From the NCBI GenBank assembly GCA_947650285.1, contig CANTFL010000608.1:248001-312000 (forward strand): a DNA stretch of 64,000 nt, given 5' to 3'. This DNA is from Hyaloperonospora brassicae (lineage: Eukaryota > Oomycota > Peronosporomycetes > Peronosporales > Peronosporaceae). The notes below the pieces were generated by a model. The model was not told where the DNA came from and did no database searches. It saw only the letters and a list, made by a program, of their open reading frames with translations. Of the stretch, positions 3,441 to 11,950 are shown piece by piece (position 1 is the first letter of the stretch; each line of letters begins with the position of its first letter). The translations under genes were made by a program, and so were the position numbers.

Positions 3441-3944
3441 GTGTCTACGACACTGCATGACATATGGGTTGAGCGCCTCCGCCGCATGGACGACTCATCT
3501 TTGTCACAGGAGTTGCACACAGCCAGAACCAAGGTTCTCTTTCGACGATCGGCTGGACGGTTTCGTGGGCCAAAATACCAGCCTAAGGTGGGAAAAGATG
3601 GGAAACCCTTTGCACAAGCAATGTCAGCATTGTCTGATACTCTCATGTGCCTAAATCTGCCTTCATCTCTGCACGTGCTGTCTATTGAAAGGTACCCGGG
3701 AAAGACTTACCTCCTGTTTTTTTACGGAGCATCCCACGGAATTCGATGTCCGAGAGCAGCTGAATCCGTCACTGTGCGACTCCACATTCAGACGCACGCC
3801 GCTTGCGTCATGTGGGTATCAAGCAAGGGTTATGGTTTCGCCTATAACACGAACAATACAGCGGAATCTTGTTGTATCATACACGGTCTTCGGCAAGCGA
3901 AAGCACGTGGCTATTTATCTGTGGATGTCATTGAGAACAGTGTA
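3441..3944 (+). pseudogene. RNase H-like domain, 5' part, interrupted by gypsy insertion
   Basis: The frame carries the layout of an RNase H domain of the kind found in some non-LTR elements. LLFFYGASHG stands where FxDGASRGN is usual, then comes YGFAYNTNNTAE, then GLRQAKARGY, then VDVIENS where a GDS motif is usual. The first catalytic Asp is Tyr and the later GDS is ENS, so the copy was already defective or is highly diverged. The frame runs directly into the 5' LTR of the gypsy element at 3945. The C-terminal part of the domain resumes after the element at 11951. The upstream 90 codons of the open frame have no motif I recognise. Confidence 0.7.
3940..3944. repeat. Target-site duplication, left copy
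   Basis: GTGTA immediately precedes the 5' LTR and is repeated exactly at 11951-11955 after the 3' LTR. A 5-base duplication is the normal product of a Ty3/gypsy integrase. Confidence 0.9.
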
Positions 3945-4336
3945 TGTAACGGGGCAGCCCTTTACATGGAATTGTCACTTTAAAAGAAAGTGACAACAAA
4001 GAATATTAAGTGAATATTATTTGAACAATATCACCGATAATGGTGATATTGGTGAAGCGACCAAAGGGTCTGCTCATTGGTTGATATCTTGATGATGTCA
4101 ACCCACCAATCGCCGCAGGACGCGCGCAATGAGTGGTGACGAGACGTCACCATACACTCAGTTATATTAACATAAGTAAGTCAGGTTAAACAGAGAGACA
4201 GTAGCAAAAAGACTTAATTATATTAATACAACAGTTTTGCTTTTCCCCTATCTACGCTTCCTCGTTTGCCTCGTGTACGTCTGTCGGGGCACCTAAACCC
4301 TTGTGTTTTGTTCACGCAAGGGTGTGCCCCGTTACA
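3945..4336 (+). repeat. 5' LTR of the gypsy element
   Basis: It begins TGTAACGGGGCA and ends TGCCCCGTTACA, so it has 12-base terminal inverted repeats around the usual TG...CA. It is 392 bases, the same length as the 3' LTR. It contains several perfect hairpins, for example arms 3972-3981/3987-3996 and 4026-4035/4042-4051. Confidence 0.95.
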
Positions 4337-4338
4337 CC

Positions 4339-4351
4339 TGGTAGCACTTTG
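4339..4351 (+). other. Putative primer-binding site
   Basis: TGGTAGCACTTTG starts two bases after the 5' LTR. The opening TGG is what a tRNA 3' CCA end would pair with, and the position is right. I cannot name the tRNA; a Met tRNA is possible. Confidence 0.45.
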
Positions 4352-4380
4352 TAGTCCTTCCAAGGACCACAGCATCCAAC

Positions 4381-5538
4381 ATGAACATGTTGGATGATGA
4401 AGAAACCTTTCACGCCACGTGTGAAGGGTTTAACCATTTGAGTGACATCGAATGGAGTGCGGTAGAACGAATGAGTTCTACCGTAGGCGAGTTCTCCATT
4501 AGCGCCATGTTGGAGTCTCTATACAGAGACCAACAACATGCCGCTACAGCCAAGTTCATCCAAAGCGAAGTTGTCGCCGAAAGGGAGAAAGTAGCCTTGC
4601 TTCACCAGCAAGGCTCTCAACAGGCCGAGCAGTTGAGAGAACTCGGTGCTCAACGGACAGAGCTGTTGAGACAGCAGCAATTCCATGCTGCTGTGGGCGG
4701 GACGGAACATGTGTGTCGTCCCGAGGTCATGAATGTTGACATCTCCAAGTACAGTGGAGTCCCGGAGGACTCCCTGTTACTGTGGTTTGTCGAACTCGAC
4801 AGAGCCCTAACGGCTCGTCGCGTTGAATATGAGCAAATGAAACTCACATTTGCTCAAACCCACTTGGCAGGACGTGCCAAAACTTGGCCCCTGGGGCTCG
4901 AGAGTAGCGACCCAAATGTGTTTAGGTCGCTAGATGACTTCAAGTCCCGGCTCAGACAACCAGTTTGAGCCGCCACGAGCTGAGTTCAGGGCTCGTTCTG
5001 AGCTCCTGAAACTCAAGCAGGGTAAGCGTGATGTGCACGCTTACGCTCAACATATACGACTCCTTGCGAGTAGTTTAACTGCTAACCCAGTTCATGAACA
5101 CACGTTGATTACGGTGTTCATGCAAAAGGGCTCGCAGAAGGGCCCGCCAGGAGCCACCTGTTCCGCCTTGAGCTGAATACGCTTGAAGAAGCGATATCAG
5201 CCGCGGAACAGGAAGACTTTAGCATGAGACAGGCTCATGCTAGCTCAAACTCTTATAGTCCACCGAGACGACAAGAGACCGGAGGTCCAGAACCAATGGG
5301 CCTCTGCTATGTTGAGATCGAGAGACCTCGCTCTTCAAACAACAAGCGATTGATGAAGTGCAATCGCTGTCAGAAGTTAGGGCACTTCGCCCATGAGTGT
5401 AGTGCCCCACGCCCAGTACCAAGCAGTACTGAGCGAAATGGACGACTATTCGCCAAGAAGGGCAATAAGCGTGGGTCCAGCGCTGTTGCGAAGCCGCAAC
5501 AGCAAATCGGACCATCAAAAAATGGTCGGGGTCAATAG
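4381..5538 (+). pseudogene. gag: gag of the gypsy element (frame-disrupted)
   Basis: The first 195 codons run from an ATG at 4381 and are Gln/Glu-rich with probable coiled coil, then a capsid-like stretch. The reading moves to another frame near 4940 (stop at 4966-4968) and returns to the first frame after about 5176. A CCHC zinc knuckle, CNRCQKLGHFAHEC, lies at 5359-5400 and is followed by a basic tail ending at 5538. The order coiled coil, capsid, CCHC is typical of Ty3/gypsy Gag. Two frame changes mean this copy does not make an intact protein. Confidence 0.85.
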
Positions 5539-5588
5539 GGGCGGAGCGCCCTACTGATCCAGCAACCTCAAGAGAATTTGCAAATCTC

Positions 5589-6146
5589 TTGACGAAAGTT
5601 GCTCCAAATACACAATCATTGTGTGTCTGTGCACCTGGTGATGACGTTTCGCTCATCACCTTGAAGTTGGAAGCGACAAATGATTTGTCGCTTCGTGCCC
5701 TAGTAGACTGTGGGGCGTCGAACAACTTTGTTTGTCGCCAGTCACTAGAGGGTCGTAGGCTCAAGTTCGTTGAGCGCGACATTCCCCTCACGAGGATGAC
5801 GGTGCGCCTTGCAACAGGCGCATCGATTACCGTTGAGAAACGTGTAGTAGGAATCCACTACACGTTGGAGGGCGAACAGTACGATGATGACTTCATCGTA
5901 CTGGATCTGGATGACAAATTTGATGTCATCCTGGGATTACCTTGGCTTAAAAAGTACGAGCCAAGGGTGAGCTGGCAGCATCGATCCGTGAAGATGCCAG
6001 CCGCTTGTTCATCAGATATCCATCTGATGAACGTCATGGAGCGTCCACAAGCGTGTGGATGTTCTGCAAGTGAGTGCTATGGCCTCACTTGCGGAACGAT
6101 CGTTAGCACGACTGCACAAGATCACAGTGTATTGATCACAGTGTAG
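5589..6146 (+). CDS. Retrotransposon aspartic protease region
   Basis: The open frame has the retropepsin-type active site context LVDCGASNNFV at about 5700-5730, where family members usually have D-S/T-G-A. A second hydrophobic block (FIVLDLDDKFDVILGLPWLKKY) follows about 70 residues later, as expected for the flap and the I-L-G segment. It is in a different frame from the following pol segment. The Ser/Thr to Cys change next to the catalytic Asp is seen in other Ty3/gypsy proteases and need not inactivate it. Confidence 0.8.
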   Translation: MTKVAPNTQSLCVCAPGDDVSLITLKLEATNDLSLRALVDCGASNNFVCRQSLEGRRLKFVERDIPLTRMTVRLATGASITVEKRVVGIHYTLEGEQYDDDFIVLDLDDKFDVILGLPWLKKYEPRVSWQHRSVKMPAACSSDIHLMNVMERPQACGCSASECYGLTCGTIVSTTAQDHSVLITV

Positions 6147-6160
6147 TTGATCACTACACT

Positions 6161-8446
6161 GTGGAGCAAGCTCCCGGCGGCTGTACAGAAGTACAGGCTG
6201 CGCCGAAGGTCCACCACTCGAAGAAGTCGAGTGGACTTGGACGTGGATGTACGCCTAGCGGGCGACATCTTAGCAAGAGTAAACCGTTTGCCCAAAAGCG
6301 GCAACACGGATATCCTAGGTCGACTGCAGAGTCGACCGTAGAGGATCGGTTCCTGACTGTGGTTGCACAGCCACAGTCAGAAGACGTCGAGGGAATAAGT
6401 CCCCACGTACTTGAGGAAGGAATTCCTCAAGAGTCACTTGCTGAAGGATTAGGCCTTCAGCAACCTATGGAAGCAAGTTCCCAGGAAGAAACCGAGACGT
6501 TGAACGTCTTGGTTAATGACGGATCAAGCGTAGGCGCTTATACGCTTGATCTGAATGTGCCTCCAAAGTTAACTTCGGAGATAACTCAGTTGCCAACGTT
6601 AGAACCGAAACGGTTCTTGGGTGATCTGCGTCGTGGCAAAGTCAAGCAGATCTGCATACTTGTCACAGAGGATGAGTTTGTGGCCGATATTCGGTCGGCA
6701 ACAGTATTTGCTGAGAACGGACGGGTTCTCAGCAGCTCATCGATGAATGAAAGTGTCCTCGATGAGAAGACTCGGATTGAGCGATACACGTCTCAATCCT
6801 GGGAGTCACTTCAGGCAAATCCTTTGTATAAGGATTTGATCGAATTCGGGGACGTCTTCCCTGAATCCGTACCTTGCGAGTTGCCTAAGGACAAATGCAC
6901 TTGACAAGAGATCGAGCTAAAACCGGGCTCAAAATATTGTGTCATGAAGCAGTGGCCACTGCCTCGTGAATAAGGACGAGCGATCGACAAGTTCTTTGCC
7001 GATCGCTTAGCAGCGGGCCATGTGAGGGAATCAACATCCCCTCACAGCTCTCCGACCTTCTGTGTGCGAAAGGCCACAGGAGGATGGCGGATAGTGCACG
7101 TGTTCAACAAGTTGAACGCTGCAACGGTACCGTCTCAGACGCCGATACCGAGGAAGGACGTAATCATAGATGGTATGTCAAAGAGTACCATCTTTTCGTC
7201 CATGGATCTGATGGATGGATTCTATCAGATCCTCATGCGTGAACGGGACATCCCGTACACGGCAGTGAGCACCCCCAGCGGGATGTTGTGGGAGTGGCTA
7301 GTGATGCCACAGGGGCTGAGTAATGCCCCTGCTACCTTCAACAGATGTGTTACAAATCTGTTGAGACCGGTGCGAGACTTCGCACCGAGTTACTTCGACG
7401 ATGTGTTCGTCCATAGTAGGGCTATGGACGGAAAGACGGACGTTGAAGCTCACAGAACTCACGTTCGTCAAGTCATTCAACTTATGCGCAAGCATAAGTT
7501 GTACGCCAACTTCAAGAAGTGTACATTTGCGGCAAGCGAAATACCACTTCTTGGGTGCATCGTGGGTAAACACGGCGTACGCCCTGATCCCGAAAATATC
7601 AAGGCGTTTACCGACTGGCCAGTGCCAGTCGATGTCAAGGGACTAAGGAAGTTCCTTGAAATAGCGGCGTCCTTGCACAAGTACTCTCGCAACTACGCCG
7701 AGATGACGGTACATCTTTCTTGGTTACTCACGAAAGATGTCAAGTGGTCATGGAACGCTGAGTGCCAGCGTTCATTTGAAGGTATCAAGCGGAGCTTGAT
7801 GCAGTCGCCGATATTGACGATTGCAGATCAGGACAGACCATTTCATGTGGTCTGTGACGCCAGCGATTTTGCGATCGGCTGTGCGTTAATGCAATTTGAT
7901 ACAGATGGTGCGGAGCGCGTCATCTTTTATTAGTCGCGTCAGCTGCAGGCAGCTGAGCGCAATTACCCAGTACATGACAAGGAACTCCTTGCCATGAAGT
8001 ACGCACTGGCTAAGTTTCGCGTCTATCTCTTGGGAGATAGACCGTTTGTTGTCTATACGGACCATGCGTCATTACGCACGGCCGTAAACAGCCCACACCT
8101 CTCGCAAAAGATGGCGAGGTGGCTGTCTTTCTTCGCGGAGTATAACTTCTCCGTGGAGTATAAGCCAGGACGACTTAATGTAGTCGCTGATGCGCTTTCG
8201 CGCCGGCCCGATTTCGAGCCGGACGCACAATCCAACAGTGAGTATAAGCCCACTGTTGCGACACTGAGAGCCAGGGTTCCGTCGTCAAGCTTACTTGACG
8301 ACGTACGAAAGGCATCCGCAGAAGATAAGGTTCTTCTGCGATTAATGGATCATCTGGTGAATCCATCCAGTAAATCATTGAAAGATTTACCGGCTTTGTA
8401 CCGATCCTCATCGGATCGGTACACAACGCGTAACGGACTGTTGTAA
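6161..8446 (+). pseudogene. pol: pol: reverse transcriptase and RNase H (nonsense codons)
   Basis: One reading frame runs from 6161 through the reverse transcriptase and RNase H but is broken by single stops at 6902, 6970 and 7931 and ends at 8444. The reverse transcriptase has FCVRKATGGWRIVHVFNKLN, SSMDLMDGFYQI, PQGLSNAPATFNR and the catalytic YFDD at 7391-7402. The Ty3-type RNase H follows with YPVHDKELLAMKYALAKFR, YTDHASL and ADALSRRP up to about 8210. Because the stops fall between conserved motifs in the same frame, they look like point mutations rather than frameshifts. The stretch before the reverse transcriptase (6161-6900) is an acidic linker with no clear domain. Confidence 0.9.
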
Positions 8447-8449
8447 TAT

Positions 8450-9466
8450 ACAGCCGTTGACGGCGACACGCCTCGTGTCGTCGTCCCCACTCATAATGAT
8501 TTGCGATTACGCATCATGTATGAGTGTCACGATGCCCCAACAGGTGGTCATCGTGGGAGAGAAAAGACTTACCTCACGGTGAGTCGTGACTTTTACTGGA
8601 CCCGCCAGTATCAGTTTGTACGCAATTACATACGTGCTTGCGAGGTTTGTCAACGGGTGAAGCCTAGTCCTTCATCCCATGCACCATTACAGCCTCTACC
8701 GGTCCCGGCAGAGTTCTGGCAGTCCGTTTCAATGGACTTCGTCTTCGGGAAATCCGAAGACGCTCACAAGAATAATGGTATTCTTGTGTTCGTTGATCGG
8801 TTCAGCAAGATGGTGCATCTTGCTGCAGTGCCCGAGTCCATCACGTCACCCGGTTGTGCTCGTGTCTTTCTTGACACGATCTTCCGACTCCACGGGTTGC
8901 CCCGTGAACTCGTATCCGACCGTGACCCTCGTTTCACGGCGGAATTTTGGCAAACCGTGTTCCGTTCTCTCGGAACACGATTGAAGATGTCTACCTCTGA
9001 CCATCCGGAAACAGATGGTCAGACGGAACGTGCAAACCGTGTCCTCGAAGAGATCCTTCGAGGATACGTCCACTCGTTTTCGAGTTGGAGCGAATCCCTT
9101 CCAATGGTGGAATTCGCCATCAATAATTCGGTGTATGCTTCAACACAGCACACACCGTTTTACGTGAATGGCTTACGCTATCCACGTGTTCCCGCCCTTC
9201 TAGAGTATGACTCTTGGATAAGGGGGGAGGGACTCGCTCGAGCAAAAACCGTTTTGGCTCTTGCTCATCACGTGTCGACGCTAACGTCGTCACGTATGAT
9301 GCTGATGTCGACAATGTCGACATCGATGAAGAAGATCACCTCAATAATAGCGATGACGCTATTATTGACTCGGATGATGATGACGATGCTGGTATATTCA
9401 GCATCGTCAACGATTATTCCAGCGAGGAAGAAGACAACCTCGCTGAAGAAGAGAACAATCTCTTAG
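8450..9466 (+). CDS. Retrotransposon integrase core
   Basis: It continues the pol frame after the stop at 8444. The zinc-binding HHCC module is visible as ECHDAPTGGHRG then CEVCQRVK. The DDE core follows: SMDFVFG near 8731, LVSDRDPRFTAEFW, and DGQTERANR. The frame then leaves the coding path near 9280, and an acidic stretch continues in another frame (9214-9525). The core looks intact residue by residue, but it sits downstream of several stops in this copy. Confidence 0.9.
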   Translation, partial: TAVDGDTPRVVVPTHNDLRLRIMYECHDAPTGGHRGREKTYLTVSRDFYWTRQYQFVRNYIRACEVCQRVKPSPSSHAPLQPLPVPAEFWQSVSMDFVFGKSEDAHKNNGILVFVDRFSKMVHLAAVPESITSPGCARVFLDTIFRLHGLPRELVSDRDPRFTAEFWQTVFRSLGTRLKMSTSDHPETDGQTERANRVLEEILRGYVHSFSSWSESLPMVEFAINNSVYASTQHTPFYVNGLRYPRVPALLEYDSWIRGEGLARAKTVLALAHHVSTLTSSRMMLMSTMSTSMKKITSIIAMTLLLTRMMMTMLVYSASSTIIPARKKTTSLKKRTIS

Positions 9467-9572
9467 CAGTGCGCACGAAGCGCACTGAAAGACAAACAAC
9501 GAGTCAGCAGAGAACTTCCTGCTGACTCGAGAGGCGGTAGTCCGTTTCGTTCAGGACTCCATCGCAAATGCG

Positions 9573-10469
9573 GTGGACCGACAGAAACGGAACGCAGACA
9601 AGAATGGAAGAGCAAATGTTCTTTCATTTAAGGTTAACGACCTAGTACTACTGTCTACGGTAAACTTACCTGGACATGCAGTCACTAGTGTCGGCAGTAG
9701 TAAACTACTGCCGAAGTACATTGGGCCATTTCGAGTGTTGCATCGCAAGGGCAATGCATACACGATCGAATTGCCACGTAAGATGCGCACGCATCCTACG
9801 TTTTACGTGGGGAGGCTCAGGCCGTACTGTAAGTACGAGCCTTCTTCTTCCGATGAAGATAGCCCCCACGTTCAAGAACATCCATCAAGTTCTTGCGTTC
9901 GCGCTCCAGACGATCCGTCTGGTCGCGCAGATATGATACCTCGGAACTCAACCGAGATACCTCCCCGCGAGCTGTCGCCAGCTCGCTGTAAAGGGATCGG
10001 ACATCCCGCTCGACCTGAAGCTGCGCTGTGGCGTAATCGGCGCGGTCTCTCGCCCGATCAGCCTCGCGATCCTTGCGGTTCTTCCGCACGGTATCGGTCA
10101 AAGCGTAGCGCCGGTCGCGCTCGTGCTTCAAGTCATCGCGCAATTCATCGATTGCGCGATCCATCTCGTAAGGGTCGAGATGGTGAGCAGAATCATCTGG
10201 AGGAGGTCTTTCCTCCTCCACCACATCCTTTAGTGAATTCTCACGGTGGTCAACGCTTTCCATTGGAGCGTATCTTGAACCACCGTGACGATTCAGGATC
10301 AAGGACGAGCTACCTCGTCCAGTGGCGGGGGTGTCCACCCTCTTGGAACAGCTGGGAGCCCCGCTCTCAGCTGTTGATGGACGTTGAAGGTCTCGTCCGC
10401 CAGTATGACGAGACTCATCCGATTGAGTCCTGTGGCCCATCGGTAAACACGCGCTTTTGGCGCTTGTAG
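9573..10469 (+). CDS. Integrase C-terminal part and chromodomain
   Basis: The start of this frame has the integrase C-terminal signature [20 protein letters not shown] followed by [12 protein letters not shown]. After a Pro/Ser/Arg-rich linker there is a chromodomain at about 10255-10420 with [32 protein letters not shown] and VRQYDETH. Chromodomains at this place direct chromovirus integration to chromatin in other species. The linker overlaps a long antisense frame (9817-10497), so both strands are open over about 650 bases. Confidence 0.85.
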
Positions 10470-10497
10470 ACGGATTGCAAGTTTTCAATCGCGTCAC
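9817..10497 (-). CDS. Antisense open frame B in the gypsy element, coiled-coil rich
   Basis: 226 codons on the strand opposite to pol. The N-terminal part is Pro/Ser/Arg-rich. From about residue 115 there is a long, strongly charged stretch ([20 protein letters not shown] onward, then [20 protein letters not shown]) with heptad-like hydrophobic spacing that would form a coiled coil. It overlaps the sense linker and chromodomain, so part of this pattern could be a by-product of sense codons. It overlaps antisense frame A by 83 bases in another register, so A and B may have been one protein before a frameshift. No homology is recognised. Confidence 0.4.
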
Positions 10498-11422
10498 GCA
10501 TCTCAGCCGAGATGTGTGCCCTTCCCCAGGGCGAACTTAGGGAATACACGTCCCTATTTGCACGCTGCGAGTTGTCAGCAGAACTCGCACAAGGGTATCC
10601 CCAAGTGAGGCATGGAATGCCGGCCTCACTTGATAAACAATGCAACCGGTACCTGGCACCGGTTGGCGTTCGCTTTTCGAACCTGAGGCGTACTGCCTCA
10701 AGCTTCTTGAGCCACCCTTCTCGTCCAAAATTCTTTACGATTTGGACGAACGCGTTCCACGCAGCCAAAAGCGAGGCTTTGTCACGCTTTTGGTTGCTAT
10801 TGTACCATCGATGTCTAAGGAAGACATCGAGATAAAAGTCTTCCTCAGCGCGAAAGTTGCTCGCGCTGGGATCCAAGCCGTGAAGCTCAGTCGCATCGGA
10901 TAAGGGTATTCGATGGTGTTGGCTTGTCTCGTGAGACAAGCCATTGATGAGCCGTTCAGGCAAACGCCACGGCTTCAGCTCATCACGCGTCACAGTGGTA
11001 CCCTTGTCGGTACCACGGTTGTCAGTATGACGATGGCTTGCACCATCGTCAAGTCGCTCGTGCGAAGGAGCACGAGCTGATCTCGGTGATGAGCAAACAT
11101 ACTCATCATCAGATTCGTCGTCACTGCCGAACAGACTGTGTTGCAACTCACGAGTCCGTTCGTTCGGAAGTGGCCTTGGCGAATACTGAGGCGTCGCCGG
11201 TGATCGAGACGTCTCTGCAACATTGCCCGAGTCATACACGTCTGAATCGCCAGAGTAGATGACCTCAATGTCGGGGTCATCATGCGCACGCGGTGCTGTA
11301 CCGCGTGCACCTGCAGCACCTCTTGCTGCAGGCGAAGAACGAGCAGCAGACGACGAATCGTCTGCCGCAGAAGCTGGCACAGGCACAGACTCTGTGTGCC
11401 TTGAGTCACCCCGCATAGACAT
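10415..11422 (-). CDS. Antisense open frame A in the gypsy element
   Basis: 335 codons with an ATG, lying between the chromodomain and the 3' LTR where the sense strand has no long frame. The N-terminal half is Ser/Ala/Asp-rich and looks disordered. The C-terminal half looks folded, with [40 protein letters not shown] and [13 protein letters not shown]. It reads convergently toward pol, and its start is about 140 bases from the 3' LTR. Antisense genes at this place are known in some plant Ty3/gypsy and other LTR elements. A regulatory or accessory role is inference only. I do not recognise the protein. Confidence 0.55.
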
Positions 11423-11543
11423 GTTAACTATGCGAGGTCAGGTTGAGTTATGAACGGAACTGACCCAATTAGTGCTCCCTGTCCCAATGGCGCCCAAAGG
11501 GTGGCCGCCAAAATTTTCGATAGTCACACAGTGACTATCAGCT
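11423..11543. other. 3' untranslated region of the gypsy element
   Basis: A short stretch between the start of antisense frame A and the polypurine tract. It contains another inverted repeat (TAGTCACACAGTGACTA) and could hold a promoter for the antisense frame, but no defined motif is seen. Confidence 0.4.
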
Positions 11544-11555
11544 AGAGGGGGGGGG
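11544..11555 (+). promoter_or_regulatory. Polypurine tract of the gypsy element
   Basis: AGAGGGGGGGGG ends three bases before the 3' LTR. This is the expected place and composition for the plus-strand primer of an LTR retrotransposon. Confidence 0.85.
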
Positions 11556-11558
11556 TGA

Positions 11559-11950
11559 TGCAACGGGGCAGCCCGTTACATGGAATTGTCACTTTAAAAG
11601 AAAGTGACAACAAAGAATATTAAGTGAATATTATTTGAACAATATCACCGATAATGGTGATATTGGTGAAGCGACCAAAGGGTCTGCTCATTGGTTGATA
11701 TCTTGATGATGTCAACCCACCAATCGCCGCAGGACGCACGTAATGAGTGGTGACGAGACGTCACCATACACTCAGTTATATTAACATAAGTAAGTCAGGT
11801 TAAACAGAGAGACAGTAGCAAAAAGACTTAATTATATTAATACAACAGTTTTGCTTTTCCCCTATCTACGCTTCCTCGTTTACCTCGTGTACGTCTGTCG
11901 GGGCACCTCAACCCTTGCGTTAAGTTCACGCAAGGGTGTGCCCCGTTACA
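11559..11950 (+). repeat. 3' LTR of the gypsy element
   Basis: 392 bases, starting TGCAACGGGGCA and ending TGCCCCGTTACA. It differs from the 5' LTR at nine positions by hand alignment, including the third base of the 5' terminal repeat (C instead of T). The hairpin near its 3' end (ACCCTTGCG...CGCAAGGGT) is perfect here and imperfect in the 5' LTR. Confidence 0.95.

What the first reader, a model, noticed from the sequence alone, without database searches (positions are those of the whole stretch)
3945..11950. The whole gypsy element is an array of short perfect hairpins
Examples read directly (arm/arm): 3972-3981/3987-3996, 4026-4035/4042-4051, 4460-4468/4475-4483, 4594-4601/4607-4614, 4671-4679/4686-4694, 4698-4704/4717-4723, 4756-4762/4767-4773, 4830-4839/4847-4856, 4905-4912/4925-4932, 4948-4954/4966-4972, 5022-5030/5036-5044, 5093-5101/5114-5122, 7339-7346/7356-7363, 7368-7375/7380-7387, 7479-7487/7492-7500, 10566-10573/10582-10589, 10602-10611/10623-10632, 10721-10729/10741-10749. 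In 4455-5125 at least ten perfect stems of 7 or more occur. With equal base use and about 13 loop lengths one expects roughly 0.5 (670 x 13 / 4^7). Arm coordinate sums modulo 3 take all values, so pairing ignores the codon register, and the array covers LTRs and the non-coding 3' part. Neighbouring host genes did not show it on inspection. Possible causes are selection for structured genomic RNA (packaging, translation, small-RNA evasion or production) or template-switch mutation during reverse transcription that writes inverted copies. I know of no described LTR element with this property.
Basis: partly seen in the sequence, partly recalled or inferred. Interest (0 to 1): 0.88.

Follow-up and report, generated by a model that had tools for sequence, protein, structure and literature searches.

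The report
Retrotransposon built as a hairpin array
A family of jumping genes carries about a hundred tiny, exact, evolutionarily guarded hairpins along its length, some twenty times more than chance, and a related family carries a smaller-sized version, which hints at an unknown whole-element folding rule.

Summary
Confirmed and extended. All 18 listed hairpins are exact. The Ty3/gypsy element at 3944-11857 has 106 perfect stems of 7+ bp (loop 3-15) against 5.1±2.3 in dinucleotide shuffles; the rest of the window is near shuffle level, and the array stops at the LTR ends. Codon-preserving shuffles do not explain it (63 vs 5.2 in pol of copy L025). All 20 copies fetched show it. Related families have it too: F2 and F3 more weakly; F0 in a smaller size, mostly 5-bp arms spanning 13-16 nt. 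Two other LTR elements show little or none; two non-LTR elements show a mild excess of small units. Between copies, inherited variants avoid stem interiors but not loops, beyond a matched chance-complementarity control; some exact two-sided changes occur. Between families most hairpins turn over: density and size persist. Wobble (G-U) is not spared relative to A-C, so plain selection on one RNA strand does not fit fully; clustered template-switch mutations were not found. Best reading: selected whole-element local folding, perhaps dispersed binding hairpins; function unproven. Literature and protein databases could not be searched.

The parts
3944..4243 (+). 5' LTR, 300 bp, itself carrying hairpins (3 stems vs 0.21 in shuffles)
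   Evidence: direct repeat with 11558-11857; 98.7% alike; hairpins
4345..4965 (+). gag region, open for 207 aa in this copy (396-aa frame with one CCHC knuckle in young copies such as L019)
   Evidence: no Pfam match for the window's fragment
5589..10469 (+). pol: aspartyl protease, RT, RNase H, integrase, SH3/Tf2-like, chromodomain; split over several frames in this copy (one 1666-aa frame in L019)
   Evidence: Pfam; frames
10415..11422 (-). 335-aa part of an antisense frame between pol and 3' LTR (540 aa in young copies)
   Evidence: antisense frames at the same place in F2, F3 and F0
11558..11857 (+). 3' LTR
3944..11857 (.). hairpin array: 106 perfect stems of 7-12 bp, loop 3-15, about one per 75 nt, mostly not overlapping (2 overlapping neighbours among 104 with loop 3-14)
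3972..3996 (.). LTR hairpin 10 bp, loop 5; other copies show an exact two-sided change
4026..4051 (.). LTR hairpin 10 bp, loop 6
6438..6463 (.). hairpin 10 bp, loop 6; pair 6445/6456 is A-T here and G-C in 13 other copies
9341..9368 (.). longest stem, 12 bp, loop 4; pair 9344/9365 changed on both sides in 3 copies
10602..10632 (.). hairpin 10 bp in the 3' part without a long sense frame

Best explanation
A group of related Ty3/gypsy elements (the window's one bears a chromodomain) is under selection to fold locally, as a string of short exact hairpins along the whole element, with a hairpin size characteristic of each family. SHOWN: the array exists far beyond chance and coding constraint, it is family-wide in the copies seen, its size differs by family, and inherited mutations in stem interiors are purged or, at times, matched on the other arm. 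INFERRED: the hairpins act in cis in the element's single-stranded form (genomic RNA, possibly also cDNA), as dispersed interchangeable units, most simply as binding or condensation sites for Gag or another element protein with a hairpin-size preference. Individual hairpins can then be lost and gained as long as the number stays high. Folding would also hide the RNA from antisense RNA and small RNAs.
For: Enrichment over dinucleotide and codon-preserving shuffles; 20 of 20 fetched copies at 12.5-15.7 stems/kb of locus. Inherited variants (>=3 copies) at 1.7-2.5% of stem columns vs 5.6-7.0% at chance-complementary 7-mers 100-400 nt apart and 9.5-11.5% in loops, for 6 of 21 references. All 21 references: OR vs non-stem 0.25-0.44, p<=7.5e-7; vs the chance control OR 0.34-0.68, p<0.05 in 20 of 21. 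Holds at third codon positions of pol (3.1% and 2.2% in stems vs 9.8% and 9.9% outside hairpins, refs L027 and L010) and in the 3' part. Variants concentrate at stem ends (5.9%) against 1.4-2.1% inside. Two-sided exact pairs 7 of 1198 vs 2 of 1416 control pairs, although control pairs vary more. Neighbouring hairpins overlap 6 times vs 35.7±3.9 at random placement (L023). Hairpin span differs by family: F1 mostly 20-28, F2 19-23 among 7+ bp stems, F0 peak at 13 (83 vs 6.2) among 5+ bp stems. F2 and F3 share base preferences in stems (purine at the 7th base from the outer end in 50/60 and 34/37) although only 8 of 45 pol hairpins coincide. MFED 40-49% in F1 vs 0-2% in two host stretches.
Against: G-U is not preferred to A-C among inherited stem variants (22 vs 25-26 pairs) or among near-perfect helices (49 vs 43 in F1, 12 vs 12 in F2, 9 vs 8 in F3; in F0 neither exceeds shuffles). 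Folding energy is about equal on both strands and z is slightly stronger with DNA parameters. So the folding strand is not identified, and classical RNA-structure selection would predict a G-U bias. Strand marks are weak. Single-copy variants are near neutral in stems even in W, L013 and L015, whose LTRs are 98.7-99.7% alike. Two-sided changes are not in excess in every comparison: L036/L037 against L019 give 12 vs 9 in controls over four directed comparisons, and F2 against F3 19 vs 22. Between the two F3 copies the stems perfect in L035 are changed more often in L038 than other sites (2.8% vs 1.7%), the reverse direction less (0.5% vs 2.0%). No binding, probing or expression data.
Confidence: 0.5

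Rival explanations
1. Template-switch generator: the element's reverse transcriptase often folds back and copies a short stretch of its own product, writing exact inverted copies and re-matching mismatched arms. Size and sequence preference are properties of each family's enzyme; no function is needed.
For: Arms are exact and wobble is not spared; in F0 perfect 5-bp units are 144 vs 14.7 while one-mismatch forms do not exceed shuffles; size is family-specific with narrow modes; strand-symmetric; two-sided changes exist.
Against: Clusters of >=3 nearby changes create hairpins no more often than direct repeats: 21 vs 22 of 639 examined (247 of 886 events dropped for length or gaps). Re-matching should leave about half of the corrected changes as two-sided pairs (my reasoning); about 99 one-sided changes are missing but 7 two-sided pairs are seen.
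Confidence: 0.22
2. Escape from RNA silencing: the element has long frames on both strands, so sense and antisense RNA may meet. Local hairpins on both strands hinder annealing into long double-stranded RNA and keep small-RNA targets closed, while stems stay too short to be diced.
For: Antisense frames of 465-540 aa between pol and 3' LTR in F0-F3, F2 and F3 clearly homologous; the stem signal is strand-symmetric, as expected if both strands must fold; with loops of 3-20 nt stems do not exceed 12 bp in this copy.
Against: Does not explain family-specific sizes, the shared base preferences or F0's tiny 5-bp hairpins, which would hinder annealing little. No transcript or small-RNA data. The link with the antisense frame rests on one clade.
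Confidence: 0.18
3. Selection acts on DNA: short dyads matter in double-stranded or single-stranded element DNA (cDNA folding, dimeric protein binding, chromatin).
For: Exact dyads, no wobble tolerance, strand symmetry, slightly stronger z under DNA parameters; F0 includes dyads with 0-2 central bases.
Against: 8-10 bp arms with 3-10 nt centres are not expected to extrude from duplex DNA (general knowledge); arms match each other also at positions without any consensus, unlike dimer sites.
Confidence: 0.08
4. Chance, base composition or coding artefact.
For: None found.
Confidence: 0.01

Closest known systems
Genome-scale ordered RNA structure (GORS) of some positive-strand RNA viruses (recalled; no paper could be opened)
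   Same: Excess folding energy along the whole genome, coding and non-coding, with individual structures not strictly conserved between relatives.
   Different: Here discrete perfect hairpins of family-specific size dominate, wobble is not favoured, MFED reaches 40-49% against roughly 5-15% as I recall for such viruses, and the bearer is an LTR retrotransposon.
Dispersed packaging-signal hairpins of small RNA viruses such as MS2 or satellite tobacco necrosis virus (recalled)
   Same: Many degenerate hairpins of a preferred size spread over the genome.
   Different: Far more hairpins (106 here), no clear loop consensus, binding by Gag untested.
Short template-switch (quasi-palindrome) mutation (recalled)
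   Same: Creates exact short inverted repeats with short loops, strand-symmetric.
   Different: The mutation clusters expected were not found.
Ty3/gypsy chromoviruses; plant Tat-lineage elements with an antisense frame (recalled)
   Same: Gene order, chromodomain, and an antisense frame before the 3' LTR.
   Different: I recall no report of a hairpin array in them; the literature could not be searched here.

Membership tests
Ty3/gypsy LTR retrotransposon (chromodomain-bearing) | two LTRs; gag; PR-RT-RH-IN order | tested here: met
   LTRs; PR, RT, RH, IN; gag frame with CCHC in L019, and Pfam gag and Ty3 capsid in the F2 relative L029 (the window's own gag fragment has no Pfam match)
Ty3/gypsy LTR retrotransposon (chromodomain-bearing) | chromodomain at the integrase C-terminus | tested here: met
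   PF00385 E 9.9e-12 in the 9573-10469 frame; not tested in F0, F2, F3
Ty3/gypsy LTR retrotransposon (chromodomain-bearing) | tRNA primer site and polypurine tract | not tested
   not examined
GORS | folding energy well above order-shuffled controls across the whole genome | tested here: met
   MFED 40.4% (window copy) and 48.8% (L023); all 22 of 22 fragments of each above 23%
GORS | structure in the genomic strand, with G-U pairs used | tested here: inconclusive
   strand-symmetric; G-U not preferred
GORS | folded state shown by hybridisation or probing | not testable with these tools
   -
Dispersed packaging signals | many hairpins of common geometry | tested here: met
Dispersed packaging signals | shared loop motif | tested here: inconclusive
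   only weak loop bias; stem-end preferences in F0, F2, F3
Dispersed packaging signals | bound by the capsid protein | not testable with these tools
   -
Template-switch mutation product | clustered changes that write an inverted copy | tested here: not met
   21 inverted vs 22 direct of 639 events
Known structured RNA family | Rfam match | tested here: not met
   0 matches at gathering threshold in 3900-11900

The most novel reading that the evidence does not exclude
A clade of LTR retrotransposons has evolved a whole-genome nucleic-acid architecture: an array of some 40-180 interchangeable, exact, size-locked hairpins whose size is a family trait that shifts between relatives (about 13 nt in F0, about 19-28 nt in F1-F3), maintained by selection without regard to codon register or wobble. 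It would be a new layer of information in mobile elements, read by a hairpin-measuring protein.
Probability: 0.35. Interest if true: 0.93.

Novelty: new variant of a known kind. Interest (0 to 1): 0.82.

Why it matters
It shows, by sequence alone, an element in which roughly a quarter of all bases lie in exact hairpin stems (23-27% in two F1 copies), on top of coding for proteins. That gives a naturally replicated test of what genome-wide structure does in a retroelement: related families in one genome differ in hairpin size and density, and two other LTR elements lack it. It could connect retrotransposon packaging, silencing escape and genome-scale RNA structure, which are usually studied in viruses.

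Tried and rejected
Chance, composition and codon use: rejected. Repeats as the source: direct 7-mers at 7-60 nt are not in excess in the element (29, against about 76 expected from the density in the rest of the window). Known RNA families: none. Template-switch clusters: not found. A G-U preference as the mark of sense-RNA selection: not found. A first impression of a G-U bias in F2 (8 vs 1) vanished with a fixed geometry (12 vs 12). A first reading that F0 (L030) lacks hairpins was wrong: it has smaller ones. LTR identity as a clock was dropped: LTR and private divergence disagree in several copies. Position conservation between families: 4 of 63 F1 and 8 of 45 F2 hairpins in register (control means 0.37 and 0.19, maxima 5 and 2), so mostly turnover. 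Relatives in viral contigs and genome contigs: none confirmed. The host is probably an oomycete, judged from recalled gene types; no call tested it.
Full report
WHAT WAS CHECKED. Counted as perfect stems of at least 7 bp with loops of 3-15 nt, the element at 3944-11857 has 106, against 5.11±2.27 in 200 dinucleotide shuffles. The 5' LTR (3 vs 0.21), gag-pol (79 vs 3.7) and the 3' part without a long sense frame (20 vs 0.70) each show it. The left flank (3 vs 2.5) and 52 kb on the right (46 vs 36.9±6.9) do not, and the array begins and ends at the LTRs. Loops peak at 4-6 nt; for loops of 3-20 nt stems peak at 8-9 bp and end at 12. In the loop histogram the excess fades beyond about 15 nt.

NOT CODING. 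Reshuffling synonymous codons while keeping the protein and codon use gives 5.2±2.2 stems in the 1339-aa pol frame of copy L025, where 63 are found. The same control gives F2 (L029) 45 vs 6.8, F3 (L035) 28 vs 5.9, F0 (L030) 8 vs 4.7; four other elements L031, L032, L033, L034 give 8, 7, 9 and 1 vs 3.1, 4.5, 3.7 and 3.8 (L031 and L033 lie 2.6-2.8 sd above, so not all are at shuffle level); 12 open frames of the window outside the element together give 15 vs 20.9.

A FAMILY TRAIT. The search of the window's own genome (100.6 Mb) with a 1.5-kb pol piece scored 40 of 2162 candidates and listed 41 matches, 40 of them over nearly the whole query. I fetched 20 of these copies: all 20 have 12.5-15.7 stems per kb of fetched locus, at 90.7-99.9% pairwise identity among 21. 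L019 has open frames for gag (396 aa), pol (1666 aa) and an antisense frame of 540 aa that overlaps the end of pol; in the window copy gag and pol are broken.

RELATED FAMILIES. L029/L039 (F2) have 9.0 and 8.7, a 5.5-kb piece of a 93% relative (L040) 7.3, and L035/L038 (F3) 6.1 and 5.4 stems per kb. L030 (F0) looked normal by the 7-bp criterion, but a table by stem, loop and span showed an array of smaller units: 83 units of span 13 vs 6.2 expected with stems >=5 bp, 160 units of span 12-15 spread over the element (both LTRs counted), and 116 vs 24.1±4.9 in pol under the codon shuffle for span 12-16. The span differs by family: among 7+ bp stems F1 mostly 20-28 and F2 19-23, F3 broader; with stems >=5 bp F1 also has an excess at 14-18. 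In the table the total excess is 240 (F1), 139.5 (F2), 68.7 and 66.2 (F3), 217.9 (F0), against 3.2 and 2.4 for the LTR elements L031 and L034 and 5.8, -8.5 and -7.7 for three host stretches. Two elements without LTRs in the fetched piece lie between: L032 32.4 and L033, a LINE by Pfam, 38.3; per kb L033 is not far below F3 in this measure, and it also exceeds the codon shuffle for small units (38 vs 18.0±4.2; L032 19 vs 22.3). So the strong form is seen in the four related families (RT proteins 63-65% identical to the window's), with geometry that changes between them; whether the LINE excess is a related matter is open.

STABILITY. In 350-nt fragments the excess of folding energy over shuffles (MFED) is 40.4% in the window copy and 48.8% in L023, 16.3% in F2, 11.6% in F3, 17.1% in F0, 2.3% and 0.1% in two host stretches, and -0.6% and -1.2% in L034 and L031. 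In copy L019, 27% of bases lie in perfect stems, in the window copy 23%. In 50-nt windows both strands agree, with RNA and with DNA parameters.

MAINTENANCE. I take variants shared by at least 3 copies as having passed through replication, and variants seen once as mostly later or last-cycle changes. In stems (6 of 21 copies used as reference) shared variants hit 1.7-2.5% of columns, in loops 9.5-11.5%, elsewhere about 7%; single-copy variants hit 10.8-12.9%, 15.0-17.8% and 13.6-15.0%. Because stems are chosen for being perfect in the reference, I built a control with the same bias: complementary 7-mers 100-400 nt apart. These have 5.6-7.0% shared variants. With all 21 copies as reference in turn (not independent), the shared-to-single ratio in stems has OR 0.25-0.44 against non-stem (p<=7.5e-7 in all 21) and 0.34-0.68 against the control (p<0.05 in 20 of 21; L024 p=0.076). 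A more inclusive definition (pair present in >=5 copies) gives 3.3% vs 7.8%. The effect is present at pol third positions and in the 3' part, and grows from stem end to interior (5.9% to 1.4-2.1%). Single-copy variants taken copy by copy show no clear stem avoidance (one of 21 copies, L017, p=0.026), as expected if most are unselected.

TWO-SIDED CHANGES. Among 1198 hairpin pairs, 92 vary on one side and 7 exchange one exact pair for another; among 1416 control pairs 226 and 2. One of the seven (columns 2402/2406) also shows unpaired states. With the window copy alone, 42 cells are two-sided exact against 2-32 when partners are slid by 1-3, 50 or 100 bases. In the diverged 3' part of L017 four directed comparisons give 3, 3, 3 and 4 two-sided pairs vs 0, 0, 1 and 0 in controls; in L036 and L037 against L019 they give 5, 4, 1, 2 vs 4, 2, 3, 0, so no clear excess there, although one-sided changes are much rarer than in controls when stems are taken from L036 or L037. 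F2 against L040: 3 vs 0 one way, 0 vs 0 the other; the two F3 copies: 0. In F0, one 2-kb piece of a relative at 90.2% identity (L041) shows stem change 3.7-5.1% vs 7.3-11.4% in chance controls and 11% elsewhere, with 3 two-sided pairs (in two hairpins) of 223 counted in one direction and 0 of 190 in the other, against 1 of 303 in four control sets.

TURNOVER. In codon alignments F1 and F2 share 4 of 63 hairpins in register (control mean 0.37, maximum 5), F2 and F3 8 of 45 (control 0.19, maximum 2). At that distance third positions in stems differ 0-7 points less often than outside and two-sided changes between F2 and F3 show no excess. So density and geometry persist, individual hairpins mostly do not.

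WHAT DOES NOT FIT A SIMPLE RNA STORY. If only the sense RNA mattered, G-U should be spared. It is not: shared stem variants give 22 G-U and 25-26 A-C pairs; near-perfect helices 49 and 43 in F1, 12 and 12 in F2, 9 and 8 in F3; in F0 perfect units are 144 vs 14.7 while all one-mismatch classes lie below the shuffle mean. Weak strand marks exist: A as first loop base in 40/92 F1 hairpins against T as last in 20/92, and A just 3' of the hairpin in 41 of 104 F0 hairpins against T just 5' in 26 of 105, but they come from many comparisons. Stem-end base preferences that differ by family (F2 and F3: G outermost, purines near the loop; F0: G outermost, pyrimidine at the loop; F1: little) suggest that something reads size and ends.

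MECHANISM. I judge selection on local folding of the single-stranded element, by dispersed and interchangeable hairpins with a family-specific size, the best account; binding or condensation by Gag is my most likely function but is inferred only (F1-F3 Gag carries one CCHC knuckle). A reverse-transcriptase fold-back generator explains exactness, size and strand symmetry, but not the lack of clustered rewrites or the low number of two-sided changes. A mixed model (generator supplies, selection keeps) is not excluded. Silencing escape is a good alternative because the families have long frames on both strands.

LIMITS. One genome only; F0 rests on one full copy and one 2-kb piece, F3 on two nearly identical copies (98.1%). 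Paper search and reading failed in every attempt and the protein database was off, so novelty rests on recall.

Noticed in passing
window 10415-11422 (-); L029 6237-7631 (-); L035 6301-7815 (-); L030 745-2160 (+): Antisense frames of 465-540 aa (335 aa in the window copy) lie between pol and 3' LTR in all four hairpin-bearing families; F2 and F3 proteins are homologous (34.5% over 478 columns), F1 to F3 only weakly (E 2e-5, without composition correction), F0 without a clear match; weak zipper-like matches near the C-terminus in F1 and F2.
   Followed up: partly
L033 (and L032): A LINE (endonuclease and RT) has about twice the expected number of small palindromes of span 12-16 in its frame (38 vs 18.0±4.2); L032 shows a mild excess in the dinucleotide table only.
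   Followed up: no
L029 pol codon-alignment columns 200-227; same columns in L035 and L030: An 8-9-bp hairpin with 10-nt loop over the peptide PVGAGRP near the start of pol is shared by F2, F3 and F0, close to the gag-pol frame change; it may be a recoding signal.
   Followed up: no
L014, L015, W: LTR divergence and private divergence disagree: L014 has LTRs 90% alike but few private changes, while W and L015 have LTRs 98.7-99.7% alike and about 2% private changes; recombination between subfamilies is one possible cause.
   Followed up: partly
L030 LTR, element coordinates 299-434: A dense run of eight 13-15-nt mini-hairpins with starts 14-23 nt apart in the F0 LTR, partly an internal 46-bp duplication.
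   Followed up: no
L015: Of 27 private variants at interior stem pairs of L015, 22 give mismatches other than G-U or A-C, an odd spectrum compared with other copies.
   Followed up: no
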